A stretch of DNA of 53,370 nucleotides from Acidobacteriota bacterium (lineage in GTDB: Bacteria; Acidobacteriota; JAAYUB01; JAMOQF01). Numbering within the stretch: the first letter of the stretch is position 1; the number at the start of each line of letters is the position of its first letter. The notes below the pieces were generated by a model, which was not told where the DNA came from, did no database searches, and was given only the letters and a program-made list of their open reading frames with translations. The stretch is taken from NCBI GenBank assembly GCA_027064125.1, contig JAMOQF010000065.1, forward strand, positions 1-53,370, read 5' to 3'. The position numbers and the translations under genes were made by a program. Positions 5,689 to 53,370 of this stretch are shown here, piece by piece.

Positions 5689-6707
5689 ATGTAGTTTAAA
5701 AGAAGATTAACTTCTTCCTTTGATAAATTATACCCTTTCATACAATTTGACCCCTTTGGAAAGGATGTGAGGTCTCTTTTTAGAAGAAAGTCTTCTAACT
5801 TTTTTCGTGGATATTTTTTAAAATCCAGAAACCCACCCCCTGTTGAAATTTTATTTTTGTCATTTTTGGGTGTATGACAGTTAAAACATCCCTTTTTAAA
5901 GAAGATGTCAAATACCCTATCCCCTTTATTTTCTTTAATTATATTTTCTGCCAGTTTATCAACTACTTGAGGTGGAATTTTTAGATTTTTTATCTCTTCT
6001 GCGTGATTTGAAAGCATGAAGAGTCTAAATTTTCCCCTATCTTTTATTTTAAACTCTTTGAAAAATTTTTTTGAATGACATACAAGACATCCACAGTCTG
6101 AAGGGGTTATCTTTTCCTTTTTGGAAAGTGATAGGGGGTTGTTTGAAATTTTTATTACCTGTTGAAATAAGGCAAAAAAGTATATGGAGAGAAATAGGGA
6201 AATTATTACAAAAAATTTATTTAATTTTTTTAGTTTTTTAGAGGGAGTGAAAAAGAGTGTGGTAAATAATAATATAGATAGCAGTATTAAAGCCCCATTC
6301 AGGGTTTTAGATAGAAATAGTTTTTTTATTCCAAGAGTAAACAGGATAATAGATGTGATTGAGATATTTAGTCTTTTAACTGCAATGTTTTTTTTCTCTG
6401 AAATTAAGAATAGGGAGAGAAAAATTAATGAGATGGAAAGAAGTAGCAGGAAAATAAAGGAAAAAATTTGAAGATCCCCTCCTTTTAACCTTGTCCAGGA
6501 AAAGGTGTTTTCATATCTAAGTTTTTCAAAGTAGAGAAAGTTTGAAAATAGGAATATGGATGCTAAAATAAAGTAGAAAAAGGTGAAGTTACTGGCTTTT
6601 TCAATTTTTTTCTTTAAAAATGTAAAGAAAATCATAAAGGAGAGCAAAAAAATTGCAAAGCCTGTCGTATCAAGTATGAAAAGGGGATCTTTGTATAGAA
6701 AGTCCAT
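5673..6707 (-). CDS. membrane-anchored dihaem cytochrome c-like protein
   Basis: A 344-residue protein whose first 185 residues hold about six hydrophobic helices (near 9-30, 41-60, 80-102, 113-130, 137-153, 164-186). A soluble domain follows with two haem c attachment motifs, CLVCH (207-211) and CFNCH (274-278). A methionine in NCMKGYN near the C-terminus could be the distal ligand of the second haem. The soluble part would face the periplasm. The ATG directly abuts the stop of the cysteine synthase gene, so both probably share a transcript. No family with this exact architecture is recognised; a role in electron transfer from the quinone pool or sulfur metabolism would be inference. Confidence 0.72.
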   Translation of the reverse strand: MDFLYKDPLFILDTTGFAIFLLSFMIFFTFLKKKIEKASNFTFFYFILASIFLFSNFLYFEKLRYENTFSWTRLKGGDLQIFSFIFLLLLSISLIFLSLFLISEKKNIAVKRLNISITSIILFTLGIKKLFLSKTLNGALILLSILLFTTLFFTPSKKLKKLNKFFVIISLFLSIYFFALFQQVIKISNNPLSLSKKEKITPSDCGCLVCHSKKFFKEFKIKDRGKFRLFMLSNHAEEIKNLKIPPQVVDKLAENIIKENKGDRVFDIFFKKGCFNCHTPKNDKNKISTGGGFLDFKKYPRKKLEDFLLKRDLTSFPKGSNCMKGYNLSKEEVNLLLNYIYTSK

Positions 6708-48004: not shown

Positions 48005-48520
48005 TATGTAGAAAACTATCGAAAATTTTTAATTTCCACCTTTTTAAAACTATTTTTAGAAAATGATAATCTCCAGATTTTTTTTGCCTGGCACCAAATT
48101 TTCTTACCCGCCCCAGAAACCCTCTAAAGGTTTATAGGATGAAAAAGGAGTTTATTTAATCGTTGGTTTTGCCAGAAAAATTTTAAGTCATTTCCAGTTT
48201 TAGGTCTTTCTTTGCCCCCCAAAAGCCATTTAAATTTTTCCCAGACATTAAATTGACACTAAATTATTCTAAATCCTGAATTTTCAATTTTTCTCAATCT
48301 TTTCTATAAACCTATGGTTGTGCTTGTAGAGGATGAATTAGATTATTAGCCTGACACCTTTTCTCCTTTTCTTTTTATCTTCTTTTTATCCAGATCTTCC
48401 AGATCTTGCCTGACACTTTCCTTACCTCCAAATTCAAATCTCAATCCCAAAATCCCAAAATCTTAAATCTTAAATCGTGCCTGACACCAATTTTAATCAA
48501 GTTCGAAATAGTAAATTTCC
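48005..48520. repeat. intergenic region with four REP-like words and short tandem repeats
   Basis: About 515 bases without a gene. REP-like words are at 48085-48095 (TGCCTGGCACC), 48348-48358 (AGCCTGACACC), 48407-48416 (TGCCTGACAC) and 48478-48488 (TGCCTGACACC), all in one orientation. Between the third and fourth copies, short direct repeats of the type CAAAATC and TTAAATC occur (48453-48476). It borders the Rhs-tip region. Confidence 0.62.
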
Positions 48521-48550
48521 TTGACATAGGAATTTTCGGTTTTCTAAAAT
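48521..48550 (+). promoter_or_regulatory. duplicated leaderless promoter, copy 1
   Basis: Perfect TTGACA (48521-48526), 18 bp, TAAAAT (48545-48550). The ATG at 48559 starts 8 bases after the -10, so transcription would begin at or next to the start codon. The block from about 48503 through 48567 recurs before 49997 and 51997. A REP-like word ends 33 bases upstream. Confidence 0.75.
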
Positions 48551-48558
48551 AAAATCAA

Positions 48559-49206
48559 ATGAAAGCAAGGAGTTTTGAGAAAAAGGATTTTTGTTTTAAT
48601 CTGAGATTTCCAGGACAGTATTATGACAGTGAAACTGGGTTTTATTATAATTTTCATAGGTATTACAGTCTGGAGAGAGGGAGGTATTTGAGGGAGGATC
48701 CAAAATTCAGATATGTAAGTTATAATTATTCATATGGAAAAGATAATCCAATATCATGGATTGATTATGAAGGATTGTCAAGAATCTTTTTTAATGATTG
48801 TTCATGTGAAGAACGAAAAGAGATAAAGAAATTGTATAAGAAGGCAAGAGATATTGGATGTTCAAAATTGTCATCACTATCCAATATTTATCCAGAATTA
48901 AAGGAATGTGCATTGCATTTTTGTGAAGATACAAGAACAATAATGTTTAATTGTAAGGTTGAATGCAGAACCCCTTTAGCTTGTGCATGTTATGAAGATA
49001 AAGAAATACATTGGGTGAGGGAAAGAGTTCATATGAAAGGCTGTGTTCCAAAAATTCCTGCAATTGAAATAATGTTTCACGAGTTGACACATGTTTTGTG
49101 TGGTACTAATGATTATGCAGGTTCAGCTTTGGCTCCTGAAAGATTGTGGGATGCATGGTGGGCTCATCCAAAGAGACTTACCAAAATGGTGTTTGGCCAT
49201 AATTGA
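48559..49206 (+). CDS. orphan Rhs-tip protein 1 with HExxH metallopeptidase tip
   Basis: A 215-residue protein. Residues 1-13 (MKARSFEKKDFCF) are a leader shared with two other genes here. Residues 14-73 are the conserved end of an Rhs core (LRFPGQYYDSETGFYY, GRYLREDP, KDNPISWIDYEGLS). Residues 74-215 form a unique tip with many cysteines and an HELTH zinc-protease motif (174-178); glutamates near 194 could be the third ligand. It lacks the usual Rhs N-terminal repeats, so it cannot be a full Rhs shell. The start is fixed by the identical ATGAAAGCA block in the three copies and their common frame; no Shine-Dalgarno exists. Exported or injected toxin function is inferred. Confidence 0.8.
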   Translation: MKARSFEKKDFCFNLRFPGQYYDSETGFYYNFHRYYSLERGRYLREDPKFRYVSYNYSYGKDNPISWIDYEGLSRIFFNDCSCEERKEIKKLYKKARDIGCSKLSSLSNIYPELKECALHFCEDTRTIMFNCKVECRTPLACACYEDKEIHWVRERVHMKGCVPKIPAIEIMFHELTHVLCGTNDYAGSALAPERLWDAWWAHPKRLTKMVFGHN

Positions 49207-49217
49207 GGTGTTTTTCA

Positions 49218-49874
49218 ATGTTTAAAAAATTTAAGCGAAAATTTTTAATGTTTTTAATAGTGTGTGCCTTATCTATTTTTTCCTTTATGCTTATATATTA
49301 TTCTGAAATTACCTATAGGGAAAATAAGGTAATAAATGATGTAGTGATTTCTCTTATCCATAATGTCATAAAGAATATGAGAAATAGGAGGAAAATTCCC
49401 TATTATAAGTTGATACCTTCTTATCCATCCATAGGGATTCCACCCGATTATTATAGATTGATTGAAACTAAGAGAAGGATAAATAATTTAATAGATAACA
49501 GAAAAGTTGTCATTGTTGTGAAATCAGGAAGATATAGTTTAAGTTTGCCGGATAAAATAGATGGGTATAAGATATTTCAGGTAAGATCATTTGATAAGAT
49601 ATTGGATGAGAAGTGGCGGTGGATTGAAGAAAATAAATCAATTGGAAAGGATTCATTAGGCTATTATGGCTTACAGTATATTTATTTTACTAAGAAGCCT
49701 TATCTTTTGATGGAAGTAAAAGATGTAATCTTTTTTAAAGGTGGTTGTGTTGTATCTGTTTTTTTTAATACAGGTATAGATGATGTTACCTATTTGGTAA
49801 GAATTTATATGATAAAAAGTAGTGGTAGGTGGATTGTTGGGAGGACAAAAATAAGATATTTATCGAAGTTTTGA
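49218..49874 (+). CDS. putative membrane-anchored immunity/partner protein of tip 1
   Basis: A 218-residue protein of no recognised family. One hydrophobic helix near the N-terminus (FLMFLIVCALSIFSFMLIYY) is followed by a basic linker and a soluble domain of about 170 residues that would lie in the periplasm. It has the end pattern SSGRWIVGRTKIRYLSKF, which resembles the last strands of NTF2-like folds, though this is weak. The ATG at 49218 follows GAGGTG by 7 bases and lies 11 bases after the Rhs-tip stop. Position directly after a tip gene suggests an immunity protein, by analogy with Rhs-CT/RhsI pairs. Confidence 0.6.
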   Translation: MFKKFKRKFLMFLIVCALSIFSFMLIYYSEITYRENKVINDVVISLIHNVIKNMRNRRKIPYYKLIPSYPSIGIPPDYYRLIETKRRINNLIDNRKVVIVVKSGRYSLSLPDKIDGYKIFQVRSFDKILDEKWRWIEENKSIGKDSLGYYGLQYIYFTKKPYLLMEVKDVIFFKGGCVVSVFFNTGIDDVTYLVRIYMIKSSGRWIVGRTKIRYLSKF

Positions 49875-49923
49875 TTAAAAAAAGAGGAATGTTTCTGCCC
49901 AGAGACTACATAAAGAGTGAAGT

Positions 49924-49934
49924 GGTGCCAGGCA
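49924..49934. repeat. REP-like word upstream of cassette 2
   Basis: GGTGCCAGGCA ends 24 bases before the -35 of the duplicated promoter. Its orientation is opposite to that of the words at 48.1-48.5 kb. Confidence 0.6.
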
Positions 49935-49958
49935 AAAAAAGAAAGTATAGAAATTTCC

Positions 49959-49988
49959 TTGACAGAAATTTTTAAGATTTCCTAAAAT
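49959..49988 (+). promoter_or_regulatory. duplicated leaderless promoter, copy 2
   Basis: Perfect TTGACA (49959-49964), 18 bp, TAAAAT (49983-49988). The ATG at 49997 starts 8 bases after the -10, exactly as in copies 1 and 3, although the spacer sequences differ. Confidence 0.75.
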
Positions 49989-49996
49989 AAAATCAA

Positions 49997-50758
49997 ATGA
50001 AAGCAAGAAGAATTGAGAGAGAAAATTTTTATTTTTTATCTATTGTATGTTTTCACCATATGGAATATGGTAATGGAAACAGATATTACTACATAAACGA
50101 TCACTTATTTACACCACAAAAGATGATTGACACATCAGGCAACACAGTCTGGCAGGCGGATTGGGATAGTTTTGGAACACTCACTGTAACCATAAACACA
50201 GTTGAGAACAACCTGAGATTTCCAGGACAGTATTATGACAGTGAGACAGGGTTTTATTATAATTTTCATAGATACTACATGCCAGAGATAGGGAGGTATT
50301 TGAGGGAGGATGAGGTAAGGGATAAATGGGATTTTAATCTGTATGTGTATGTGGGGGATAGGCCGGTTGATTCTATAGATTTTACAGGATTAGAGGAAGA
50401 TAATGGAGAAAATAACGGTTCTTCAGGATATGAGAAGTGTGTGGAAATTTGCAGGAACTATTATAGAAGAGAAGTAGAAAAATGTAGAGAAGATTTAACC
50501 AGATGCAGTATTTGGTATACTGGTGCCATAATAATTTTTAGTGTAACAAGTGCCTTTGCCACGGAAGGGGGAAGTATGTTAGTAGAGGGTGGTTTAGCAG
50601 CTAATACCCTTAGAGGGATGTTAATTCGTAGGGGAGGGTATATAATAGGAGGGTTTGGATTTTGGTGTTATTATGGTTGGTGGGGTTGTAATAGGACAGC
50701 GTGGGAGCACTATAAAAAGTGCGTATGTGATTGTAAGAATGCTTTTGGTGGAAAATAA
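49997..50758 (+). CDS. orphan Rhs-tip protein 2, cysteine-rich hydrophobic tip
   Basis: A 253-residue protein. It begins with the shared leader (MKARRIERENFYF) and then a longer Rhs core remnant (about residues 28-133), including YYYINDHLFTPQKMIDTSG, LRFPGQYYDSETGFYY and GRYLREDE. The tip (about 134-253) has CxxxC pairs (KCVEICRN, EKCREDLTRC), a hydrophobic glycine-rich centre (GAIIIFSVTSAFATEGG, GGYIIGGFGFWCYYGWWG) and a final CVCDCKN cluster. Two membrane-active helices are plausible, so a pore-forming or membrane-inserting toxin is the favoured reading, unproven. The core block 50213-50311 matches 48601-48699 of cassette 1 at about 90 of 99 bases. Confidence 0.78.
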   Translation: MKARRIERENFYFLSIVCFHHMEYGNGNRYYYINDHLFTPQKMIDTSGNTVWQADWDSFGTLTVTINTVENNLRFPGQYYDSETGFYYNFHRYYMPEIGRYLREDEVRDKWDFNLYVYVGDRPVDSIDFTGLEEDNGENNGSSGYEKCVEICRNYYRREVEKCREDLTRCSIWYTGAIIIFSVTSAFATEGGSMLVEGGLAANTLRGMLIRRGGYIIGGFGFWCYYGWWGCNRTAWEHYKKCVCDCKNAFGGK

Positions 50759-50778
50759 AAATCAGGAGAAGTTTTAGA

Positions 50779-51852
50779 GTGAAGTGGATTGAGATATTTT
50801 CAGGTTTAAAGTGGGATAGGATTGATTTATTAATTAGGAATATAGCATTACTTCTTCTTCCTTTTGTTGGGATTACTTTTTTTACTTCTTTTGAGAGTGG
50901 TGAAACATCGATTTTAGAGATTACTGGTTACGTAATATATGGAATATCTTTTGTGGGGATAATCACCTTGAGTTGGGGATATATATATGCTGTTGGTTGT
51001 GGGAGCAAGGAGTGTTTACACGAGAAGGTGAGGAAGGTTTTATCTGTTTTTGATGTTTTTCCAATGGTGGTGGTTTTTTCTTTTTTGATAGGGAAGAGGT
51101 TTTTAATGGGAAGGGGAGAGTTGGAAGTTGAGCAATTGAGGAGTATTGTAAGTTTGATTGAGGTAAAAAGAGACTTTATTTTTTTTCTTTTTCCTTTCCA
51201 GTGTATGTTTATTTACGGTGGTTTTGTTTTTGTTTGGGGAATTATAATGGTGAAATTTTGTAGATTGAGGGAGTTAATTAGGAGAAGATTGATTTTATTT
51301 TCTTATTTTTTTACGCTTTTAATATTTATGTTATTACTTTTTGTAATGATTTTTCCAAGTATTATCAGGAGTGAGGAAATGAATTATATTAGATATTTTG
51401 TGTTTTTTCTTTTTTTTCTGGTAAACATTTCTGGGTGGGGGTATTTATATAAACTTACATATAAAGAAGAGAAAGAAATAATGGAAAGGGAAGATGAATA
51501 TAGGATGTTGCATCTGGTAGCGGTGTGGATTATCCAGTCAGTTTCATCTATTTTAGCGAGTATAGTTTTTTTAACTAAAGAAGAATTGGTTTGGAGGTTG
51601 GTGTGTCAGCCTGGGACGCCCCCTGAGGTAATTCATATTGATGACATTTATATTTTTATCATTTATTTAATAGTATTTTTCCTTTTTTGGTTGATTATTG
51701 CCTTTAAGTGGATGTGGGAAATTATTCCTCCTTCTGAATTTGAAAAAAGAATAGAATATTTAAAAGAATCTCCTGAACTCAAGCGTAAGGAAATATTTTT
51801 ATCTTTTGCTTTAAATTTGGTTTTTTTGATTGCAGTATACTTATGGATTTAA
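50779..51852 (+). CDS. polytopic membrane protein, putative immunity partner of tip 2
   Basis: A 357-residue protein with about eight hydrophobic helices spread over its length and short charged loops. The start is GTG at 50779, after CAGGAGAA. It has no recognised family. It follows tip 2 after 20 bases and probably shares its transcript. Multi-span partners occur with pore-forming toxins, so immunity against a membrane-acting tip is a reasonable inference. Its opening residues IFSGLKW resemble IFSELKA in the partner of cassette 3. Confidence 0.6.
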   Translation: MKWIEIFSGLKWDRIDLLIRNIALLLLPFVGITFFTSFESGETSILEITGYVIYGISFVGIITLSWGYIYAVGCGSKECLHEKVRKVLSVFDVFPMVVVFSFLIGKRFLMGRGELEVEQLRSIVSLIEVKRDFIFFLFPFQCMFIYGGFVFVWGIIMVKFCRLRELIRRRLILFSYFFTLLIFMLLLFVMIFPSIIRSEEMNYIRYFVFFLFFLVNISGWGYLYKLTYKEEKEIMEREDEYRMLHLVAVWIIQSVSSILASIVFLTKEELVWRLVCQPGTPPEVIHIDDIYIFIIYLIVFFLFWLIIAFKWMWEIIPPSEFEKRIEYLKESPELKRKEIFLSFALNLVFLIAVYLWI

Positions 51853-51920
51853 GTTTTGTTTTGTGTTGTATTTATGAGGGATCTGAAATATACGTTTAGC
51901 ATAAGAGTGTCTAAAACAAA

Positions 51921-51929
51921 TGCCAGGCA
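51921..51929. repeat. REP-like word upstream of cassette 3
   Basis: TGCCAGGCA ends 29 bases before the -35 of the third duplicated promoter, in the same orientation as the copy before cassette 2. Confidence 0.6.
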
Positions 51930-51958
51930 GAAAATTTTCCACGAAATAGTGAATTTCC

Positions 51959-51988
51959 TTGACAGAGATTTTTCCCGTTTTCTAAAAT
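51959..51988 (+). promoter_or_regulatory. duplicated leaderless promoter, copy 3
   Basis: Perfect TTGACA (51959-51964), 18 bp, TAAAAT (51983-51988), and an ATG at 51997 after 8 bases. The upstream CGAAATAGTGAATTTCC part is nearly identical to copy 1. Confidence 0.75.
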
Positions 51989-51996
51989 AAAATCAA

Positions 51997-52392
51997 ATGA
52001 AAGCAATGAATTTAGAAAGAGAAAATTTTGGTTTTTTAAATGTTTTTTATGTTAAAGATAATCCGGTGATGGGATATGACAATAAAGGACTTGTTCCAGA
52101 TTGGTGTAAGTGTAAAAAAGGAAGAAATGAGTGGATGGAAAATTGTTTAAGGTCTTGTAATAGTAATGGTTTTAGTTATAGTCAAGGAATTTTTTTTTCA
52201 GCGCTGTGTAGTGCTGTTTCAGGTGCTGTTGGAGGTGGATTTATAATTGGAGGTATTTCCGGAGTTCTATGTAATCCACAATTTTGGTGTTTTCTTGTGT
52301 GTAATGAGGAGGAGAGAAAAATATGTGAACCAGAGATACCATCTTATTTACCTAATCTTGGGCCTGGATGGGAAGCAGGACCCATATATTAA
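51997..52392 (+). CDS. orphan Rhs-tip protein 3, minimal core, hydrophobic Cys-rich tip
   Basis: A 131-residue protein. The leader (MKAMNLERENFGF) is joined directly to only the last residues of an Rhs core (FYVKDNPVMGYDNKGL, 17-32, matching the usual YxxxNPxxxxDxxGL end). The tip has CKCKKGRNEW, ENCLRSCNS, a Gly-rich hydrophobic helix (SAVSGAVGGGFIIGGISG, 72-89) and further cysteines. It is the most truncated of the three. The tip style resembles tip 2 (Cys pairs before and after a membrane-prone segment), so a related membrane-acting activity is possible. Confidence 0.76.
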   Translation: MKAMNLERENFGFLNVFYVKDNPVMGYDNKGLVPDWCKCKKGRNEWMENCLRSCNSNGFSYSQGIFFSALCSAVSGAVGGGFIIGGISGVLCNPQFWCFLVCNEEERKICEPEIPSYLPNLGPGWEAGPIY

Positions 52393-52424: not shown

Positions 52425-53276
52425 ATGAGATGTTTTATTTTTGAAGGAATATTCTCAGAGTTAAAAGCAGGTGAAATGGAGAATCCTGTTGGAAGATTTT
52501 TTGGGATTTTTTTCAGTTTTCTTTTTTTATATTTTTTTGTTTCTGATTATGTGAAAGGAATATCAGACGCAAGGATAGATGTAAATTTGGGTATTTTTTT
52601 GTTTTTTTTAAGATATATTTTGTATGATACATATATGCGTTATTTTTTACATGGGAGAAGAAAAGGAAATATTCAGGATATATTTAGCCATTTGGAAGAA
52701 TTGATCATGCTCTATTTAAAAAAAAGAAGAGATATATATAAACGTTGTAAGAAAGTCTGGTTGATTTATTTTTGTATATTTTGTGTTGTAAATGGAATTA
52801 TGTTAATTTTTGTATATTTTGATAATAAACTCTCCTTTTTTCATTTTGGTATAGAGGAGTACTTTAGTTTTGATAAAGGGATTAATAGTGTTAGGTATTT
52901 CCTTATCATTTTAAGTATATATGAGTTTTCGGTATGTATTAATATATTAAATGCAGTAAAGTTTTTAAGATGTTTAAAAAGATATGTAATAGGTGTTGGG
53001 GAATCTGATGATTTTGAAAGTAAGGTAATAATGGAGATTTTAGTCAATAGAGAGATGTTTATTTTATATTTTTTCGAGTATTTTGTTTTATTTTTTGTTT
53101 TTCTTTACAGCCCCCGGGTGGGGGTATGGCTTTTTGTATTGTATTTTTATGTTTTAGGATTAATTATAGTTAGAGATGTTTTGAATTTAAATAGATTTTT
53201 GGAGAAAAAGGAAAATTATCAGTCTTTGATGGATAGGTTAAAAAAGGTAGAAGGTGAGATCATTGCCAGCAGTTAA
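52425..53276 (+). CDS. polytopic membrane protein, putative immunity partner of tip 3
   Basis: A 283-residue protein with about six membrane helices (for example FFGIFFSFLFLYFFV and YFFEYFVLFFVFLY). The ATG at 52425 lies 3 bases after AGGTGG; the frame also opens at ATG 52401, where GAGGA touches the start. No recognised family. It is the only gene between tip 3 and the leader fragment at the right edge and is a candidate immunity protein. The segment IFSELKAGEMENP recalls IFSGLKWDRIDLL in the partner of cassette 2, a weak hint of a common origin. Confidence 0.58.
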   Translation: MRCFIFEGIFSELKAGEMENPVGRFFGIFFSFLFLYFFVSDYVKGISDARIDVNLGIFLFFLRYILYDTYMRYFLHGRRKGNIQDIFSHLEELIMLYLKKRRDIYKRCKKVWLIYFCIFCVVNGIMLIFVYFDNKLSFFHFGIEEYFSFDKGINSVRYFLIILSIYEFSVCINILNAVKFLRCLKRYVIGVGESDDFESKVIMEILVNREMFILYFFEYFVLFFVFLYSPRVGVWLFVLYFYVLGLIIVRDVLNLNRFLEKKENYQSLMDRLKKVEGEIIASS

Positions 53277-53284
53277 TTTTAATA

Positions 53285-53370
53285 AGTAGTTTTGAAAAAA
53301 AGGATTTTTGGTGTCCATTTAAGTGCTGGCTGGAGGAAAGGACTTTATGTGAGGAGCCTGATTTATTCTG
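53285..53370 (+). pseudogene. fourth leader copy without promoter, partial, runs off the window
   Basis: AGTTTTGAAAAAAAGGATTT (53288 onward) is nearly identical to the leader of cassette 1 (48571 onward). It reads in the same frame as SFEKKDFWCPFKCWLEER, with no stop up to 53370. No ATGAAAGCA, TTGACA or TAAAAT precedes it in the expected places; the bases upstream belong to the end of the previous gene. It is either a broken cassette or a fusion whose start lies elsewhere. Confidence 0.5.

What the first reader, a model, noticed from the sequence alone, without database searches (positions are those of the whole stretch)
48503..52010. Three Rhs-tip genes start from the same duplicated, leaderless promoter-plus-start block
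At 48521, 49959 and 51959 a perfect TTGACA, an 18 bp spacer and TAAAAT lead after exactly 8 bases to ATGAAAGCA. In each case the frame continues through a shared 13-residue leader (MKAxx-hydrophobic-E-K/R-x-D/N-F-x-F) into an Rhs core fragment and a different tip. Orphan Rhs-CT modules are usually thought to be promoterless and silent until recombined onto a full rhs gene. Here each tip seems to carry its own strong promoter and start, implying independent expression of short tip proteins. The spacer bases differ between copies while promoter boxes, distance and start are kept, as expected under selection.
Basis: partly seen in the sequence, partly recalled or inferred. Interest (0 to 1): 0.9.

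Follow-up and report, generated by a model that had tools for sequence, protein, structure and literature searches.

The report
Duplicated leaderless promoter for orphan Rhs tips
In an uncultured acidobacterium, a copied stretch of DNA holding a strong-looking promoter directly joined to a start codon sits in front of many detached toxin-like gene tips and their neighbouring protective genes, so these modules look built to be expressed on their own rather than kept as silent spare parts.

Summary
TTGACA-18 bp-TAAAAT-8 bp-ATGAAAGCA occurs three times in the window and 11 times, one copy decayed, in the 2.6 Mb acidobacterial MAG. The only other genome held of its genus has the same architecture, with spacer and gap strongly diverged, before its one Rhs gene whose 5' end is visible. 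It was absent from the rest of 396 genomes drawn from the phylum, apart from one hit near no recognisable Rhs gene. The boxes changed 0 times in the ten intact copies; the 26 spacer and gap bases changed 23 times. The only copy with damaged boxes also has a dead frame. The genome mostly uses Shine-Dalgarno starts, and no block gene has one. Tips are followed by genes that pair with tip families, even across species. Three copies with intact boxes have lost the tip but precede a downstream gene, immunity-like in two. Core fragments are under purifying selection, while the leader peptide is nearly free. No full-length rhs, YD repeat or T6SS sheath was found. Best reading: a genus-specific 5' cassette that drives tip-immunity operons from a leaderless start. 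Own-promoter expression of orphan Rhs tips is known in Salmonella, so this is a new variant. Transcription, toxicity and immunity are inferred.

The parts
48521..48550 (+). promoter-like block, copy 1: TTGACA, 18 bp, TAAAAT
   Evidence: exact pattern match; 11 of 12 to the sigma-70 consensus; boxes invariant across species
48559..49206 (+). tip gene 1 (215 aa), ATG 8 bases after the -10 box, no Shine-Dalgarno; leader then Rhs core from NLRFPGQ, boundary PISWIDYEGL, tip with an HELTH motif
   Evidence: TIGR03696 E=2e-14; no SD
49218..49874 (+). putative immunity gene 1 (218 aa, hydrophobic N-terminus), start 11 bases after the tip stop, SD GAGGT
   Evidence: no Pfam or NCBIfam match; role inferred from position
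49959..49988 (+). promoter-like block, copy 2
49997..50758 (+). tip gene 2 (253 aa), leader then RHS motif and core, boundary PVDSIDFTGL, Cys-rich tip
   Evidence: PF03527 E=1.6e-10, TIGR03696 E=9e-20
50779..51852 (+). putative immunity gene 2 (357 aa, membrane protein), SD AGGAG
   Evidence: homologue (E=7e-35) follows the homologous tip on contig C24; SD
51959..51988 (+). promoter-like block, copy 3
51997..52392 (+). tip gene 3 (131 aa), leader joined directly to boundary PVMGYDNKGL and a WCKCK-type tip
   Evidence: tip homologous to those on C24, C53 and G001 C54; no family match
52425..53276 (+). putative immunity gene 3 (283 aa, membrane protein), SD-like AGGT
   Evidence: homologous (E=8e-10) to the gene kept behind tip-less block copy C182b; SD
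53285..53370 (+). leader fragment without promoter at the contig end, matching the start of the tip-less copy C182b
   Evidence: sequence comparison

Best explanation
The block is the 5' unit of self-standing orphan Rhs tip-immunity operons. A sigma-70-type promoter places the transcription start at or within about two bases of the ATG, giving a leaderless mRNA. The first reading frame is a short leader, a remnant of the Rhs core of variable length and a toxin-like tip. The second frame, translated from its own Shine-Dalgarno site in several units, is the cognate immunity-like protein. The block was copied around the genome by recombination, and different tips were joined to it at several in-frame points. 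Selection keeps the promoter and start because they keep the operon expressed, above all the immunity gene. Inefficient leaderless starting of the tip against SD-driven starting of the immunity gene would favour excess immunity. Shown: sequence architecture, conservation in two species, pairing of tips with downstream genes, purifying selection on the core. Inferred: transcription start, translation, toxicity, immunity and the balance between the two genes.
For: Eleven copies, ten with perfect boxes. The sister genome has the same TTGACA-18-TAAAAT-8-ATG before an Rhs gene found by protein homology alone. Box changes 0 versus 23 in spacer plus gap, P about 0.001. The one copy with both boxes damaged (C54) has a dead frame. 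Leaderless geometry is peculiar to the blocks: among 226 genes, TA.AAT ending 8 bases before the first ATG occurs 5 times, and TTGACA plus a -10 box this close to a start is seen only at the three window blocks. No SD before any block gene, while SD-like sites precede several downstream genes. Tip and following gene families co-occur: C65b/C24, and C171a/G001 C7 across species. Core dN/dS mostly 0.02-0.2. Three copies with intact boxes (C182b, G001 C386, G001 C400) lack the tip but precede a gene with an SD-like site, homologous to immunity-like genes elsewhere in the first two.
Against: No transcript data. Copies within the genome are related and partly recent (identical spacers in C65b, C182a and C182b), so box identity is not all independent. 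The leader peptide is nearly unconstrained. Some downstream genes lack a clear SD (C171a) or gave no candidate in the scan (C53). Tips have no family match, so toxicity rests on Rhs context. Purifying selection on the core could date from a time on full-length genes.
Confidence: 0.62

Rival explanations
1. The block is the 5' end of the lineage's ordinary rhs gene, including its real promoter. Orphan copies arose by internal deletion or tip displacement and the promoter is just what came along, now without function.
For: Sister-species gene C7 starts with the block and runs through a longer Rhs core before the RHS motif. Long rhs genes are the repeats a short-read MAG is most likely to miss. 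A longer-core gene on C182 has a diverged, similar upstream stretch.
Against: No YD-repeat match in the 94% complete assembly. An in-frame stop overlapping the -10 box (window) or just before the ATG (sister) rules out read-through from a longer gene. Functionless relics would not be expected to keep 12/12 box bases across species while the spacer diverges strongly, nor to keep boxes when the tip is lost.
Confidence: 0.2
2. The block is a repeat or mobile promoter that spreads on its own; its association with Rhs tips only reflects where it landed, and conservation reflects recent copying.
For: The spacer and gap are identical between C65b and C182a although their cores differ at a third of third-codon positions (p=7e-4, one of ten pairs), so the block can move or convert independently of the core. 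The C54 copy precedes an unrelated gene. Flanks contain a common GTGCCAGGCA-type repeat.
Against: Nine of the ten intact copies lead in frame into an Rhs core or boundary, and the tenth into a shortened frame before an immunity-like gene. No terminal repeats or transposase associated with the block were seen; 5' boundaries differ between copies.
Confidence: 0.12
3. The tips are not translated from these ATGs; transcription reads through from upstream units and only immunity genes, with their own SD sites, are made.
For: No SD before any block ATG. Orphan CdiA-CT in E. coli EC93 is transcribed but not detectably made, while its CdiI is (PMC3150448).
Against: Three different leader-core junction types all keep frame from the ATG; core dN/dS is low; 8 bases between -10 and ATG is leaderless geometry (PMC3160421).
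Confidence: 0.06

Closest known systems
Salmonella Rhs main and orphan toxins expressed from internal P2 promoters (PMC7043789)
   Same: Orphan Rhs tip plus immunity gene transcribed from a conserved promoter shared by many different tips, proposed to act like a type II toxin-antitoxin module
   Different: P2 lies inside the conserved core coding sequence and uses a CTG start with a ribosome binding site; here the promoter is non-coding, lies before the whole reading frame, and has leaderless geometry with ATG
Orphan rhs-CT/rhsI and cdiA-CT/cdiI modules (PMC3967940, PMC3150448)
   Same: Detached C-terminal tips with residual core and linked immunity genes, in tandem
   Different: Those usually lack translation start signals and lie behind a full-length gene; these carry promoter and start, and no full-length gene was found
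Leaderless toxin-antitoxin transcripts of Mycobacterium tuberculosis (PMC3898074)
   Same: Leaderless mRNAs are over-represented among toxin-antitoxin modules
   Different: There leaderless starts are genome-wide (about a quarter of genes with a mapped primary start site); here the genome appears mainly SD-led and the architecture is peculiar to one gene family
Immunity gene arrays formed by effector displacement in Vibrio cholerae (PMC5361080)
   Same: Loss of the effector with retention of the immunity gene
   Different: The paper's text does not mention promoters; here every unit carries its own

Membership tests
Rhs orphan tip-immunity module | Residual Rhs core ending at a PxxxxDPxGL-type boundary | tested here: met
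   TIGR03696 in genes 1 and 2. The boundary reads PxxxxDxxGL in most tips, that is without the proline after D. Gene 3 has the boundary only.
Rhs orphan tip-immunity module | Variable tip beyond the boundary, paired with a specific downstream gene | tested here: met
   co-occurring tip and downstream families, one pair across species
Rhs orphan tip-immunity module | Tip toxic and downstream protein protective | not testable with these tools
   no family matches for the window's tips; single-sequence structure model useless, pLDDT 34
Rhs orphan tip-immunity module | Lies behind a full-length rhs gene (usual, not obligatory) | tested here: inconclusive
   no PF05593 match in the own assembly, but the assembly is fragmented at these repeats, so absence is provisional
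T6SS-delivered Rhs effector | T6SS present in the genome | tested here: not met
   no PF05591 sheath protein in the own genome, control E. coli positive
Leaderless gene | -10-like box about 12 bases upstream of the start, no SD | tested here: met
   first T of TAAAAT is 14 bases before the ATG; no SD
Leaderless gene | Mapped transcription start within 5 bases of the start codon | not testable with these tools
   needs dRNA-seq or Cappable-seq

The most novel reading that the evidence does not exclude
A bacterial genus has turned Rhs tips into a family of stand-alone, leaderless toxin-immunity operons with no full-length rhs gene, spread by recombination of a dedicated 5' promoter-start cassette. 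The leaderless start throttles the toxin while an SD start over-produces immunity, so the tips persist as addiction modules or as an immunity repertoire rather than as injected effectors.
Probability: 0.3. Interest if true: 0.75.

Novelty: new variant of a known kind. Interest (0 to 1): 0.58.

Why it matters
Why bacteria keep orphan polymorphic-toxin tips is an open question: silent spare parts, immunity repertoire, or selfish addiction modules. A promoter and start conserved separately from the delivery gene, repeated before different tips and retained when the tip is lost, argues for expression as the reason they are kept, outside the enterobacteria where this was first shown. Because box, spacing and start are defined to the base, the idea is directly testable with reporters.

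Tried and rejected
General genomic leaderless usage: rejected, TA.AAT is not enriched near ATGs apart from the blocks and SD sites are common. Block as part of a full-length rhs reading frame: rejected by in-frame stops just before the ATG. Viral origin of this Rhs core: no relatives in viral contigs. Wider spread: the strict block pattern is absent from all 59 other relatives searched, including the sister genome, whose spacer differs; the looser pattern is absent from the phylum sample except the sister and one hit near no recognisable Rhs gene. Loosest pattern hits in order-level relatives precede unrelated genes or a tRNA. A conserved targeting role for the leader peptide: not supported, little purifying selection; a lipoprotein-like FLFIGC stretch occurs in some copies only. 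Structure prediction of tip 1: pLDDT 34, no use. Homology of the G001 C400 downstream gene to immunity-like genes: not significant.

Full report
OBSERVATION. The pattern TTGACA, 18 bases, TAAAAT, 8 bases, ATGAAAGC is present exactly at 48521, 49959 and 51959 and not elsewhere in the window; shuffled sequence gives none. The frames run 215, 253 and 131 codons. In this 2.58 Mb, 222-contig, 94% complete assembly there are seven exact copies and eleven in all, whether sought by pattern with up to three mismatches or by BLAST with a 91-base query, which shows a clean break between the eleventh hit (E=1.5e-12) and the next (E=0.001). Several contigs begin or end inside these repeats, so eleven is a minimum.

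WHAT FOLLOWS THE BLOCK. In the genome the copies lead into: Rhs core plus tip (C65 genes 1 and 2, C167, C171 twice, C53), the boundary motif plus tip (C65 gene 3), core running off the contig (C182a, C181), a 50-codon frame without a tip (C182b), and one dead frame, MKAGG-stop (C54). Genes 1 and 2 match the Rhs core model TIGR03696; gene 3 does not but carries PVMGYDNKGL, close to the usual boundary form. The leader joins the core at three kinds of points, always in frame: at NLRFP (C65 gene 1, C53), at the boundary region (gene 3), and near YYYIND (the others). No YD-repeat match and no T6SS sheath protein was found in the genome.

SISTER SPECIES. The one other genome of the genus held (JALULU01, an acidobacterial MAG) has three short Rhs core genes. 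Only one has its 5' end on the contig. It was found by protein similarity, not by the promoter pattern, and it starts with TTGACA-18-TAAAAT-8-ATGAAAG. Two further copies came from the loose pattern search and so are subject to ascertainment: C386, whose leader is homologous to that of C7, and C400. The spacer matches the window genome at only 7-11 of 18 bases and the gap at 4-5 of 8, while the boxes match 12 of 12 except in decayed C54. In a 396-genome phylum sample only these two genomes and one hit near no recognisable Rhs gene in another family match.

SELECTION. On a neighbour-joining tree built without the box sites, the 12 box bases of the ten intact copies show 0 changes and the 26 spacer and gap bases show 23 (permutation P about 0.001; with two sister copies about 1e-5, the second figure being biased by how C386 was found). 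The one decayed copy has changes in both boxes and no reading frame. Core fragments have dN/dS mostly 0.02-0.2; the leader ranges from about 0.1 to above 1 with few sites. So promoter, spacing, ATG and the core are constrained, the leader peptide hardly so. Caveat: copies are related and some spacers are identical. For C65b and C182a the spacer and gap are identical while a third of core third-codon positions differ (p=7e-4 before correction for ten pairs). This suggests that the block can be exchanged independently of the core.

LEADERLESS GEOMETRY. With eight bases between the -10 box and the ATG, a start at the usual distance lies 0-2 bases before the ATG. None of the 12 genes tested has a Shine-Dalgarno site. 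In 291 kb with 226 genes, 158 have an SD-like site before a candidate start against 73 in a shifted control, and TTGACA plus a -10 box this close to a start is seen only at the three window blocks, plus one weaker match at another distance. Signals of this kind about 12 bases upstream have been taken as the sign of leaderless genes (PMC3160421).

THE DOWNSTREAM GENES. Mostly hydrophobic proteins follow each tip closely. Their families track the tips: the C65b-type tip on C24 is followed by a homologue of the C65b downstream gene (E=7e-35), and the C171a tip and its neighbour both have homologues side by side in the sister species. Several have SD sites (AGGAG, GAGGT, GGAGG). Three copies with perfect boxes have lost the tip but are followed by a gene with an SD or SD-like site: C182b (homologue of the gene after tip 3, E=8e-10), G001 C386 (homologue of the gene after the C205 tip, E=8e-29) and G001 C400 (a membrane protein without significant homology). 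This is what is expected if the promoter is kept for the immunity gene.

INTERPRETATION. The block is best read as the 5' end of self-standing orphan Rhs tip-immunity operons with a leaderless first gene. The idea that leaderless starting throttles the tip while SD starting favours immunity is inference. It has a parallel in the over-representation of leaderless transcripts among toxin-antitoxin genes of M. tuberculosis (PMC3898074). Novelty here lies in a non-coding, leaderless, per-unit cassette in another phylum, with no full-length gene found.

LIMITS. No expression data; toxicity and immunity unproven; the window's tips match no family; the assembly is fragmented, so a full-length rhs gene may have been missed.

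Noticed in passing
48623-48651 and 50235-50263: Inside the Rhs core coding sequence lies a second promoter-like site, ATGACA-17-TATAAT (11 of 12), reminiscent of the Salmonella P2 promoter inside the core. The TATAAT is not kept in the sister genome (TATTACAAC there), so it may be a by-product of the codons.
   Followed up: partly
15, 51, 7781, 7807, 7898, 12769, 12799, 27498, 48085, 48407, 48478, 49925: A short repeat TGCC(T/A)G(A/G)CAC occurs 12 times in the window against 0.07 expected, often in pairs, and also near blocks in both species; possibly a REP-like element.
   Followed up: partly
53285-53370 and L021 (C182) 6712 downwards: A leader fragment lacking the promoter sits right after immunity gene 3 at the contig end and matches the leader of the tip-less copy C182b (FWCLFKCWLEERTLC...).
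   Followed up: partly
L021 (C182), reverse-strand position 6607-6612: The stop codon of the upstream gene lies inside the -35 box (CCT TGA CA) of block copy C182a, showing how tightly units are joined.
   Followed up: yes
L023 (C54) 947-992 and 2-814: A decayed block precedes a gene unrelated to Rhs; on the other side lies an ATPase-like gene with a homologue on sister contig C400, which also carries a block, 3.8 kb away.
   Followed up: no
48559-49206: Tip 1 contains an HELTH motif, as in zinc metallopeptidases, without any family match.
   Followed up: partly
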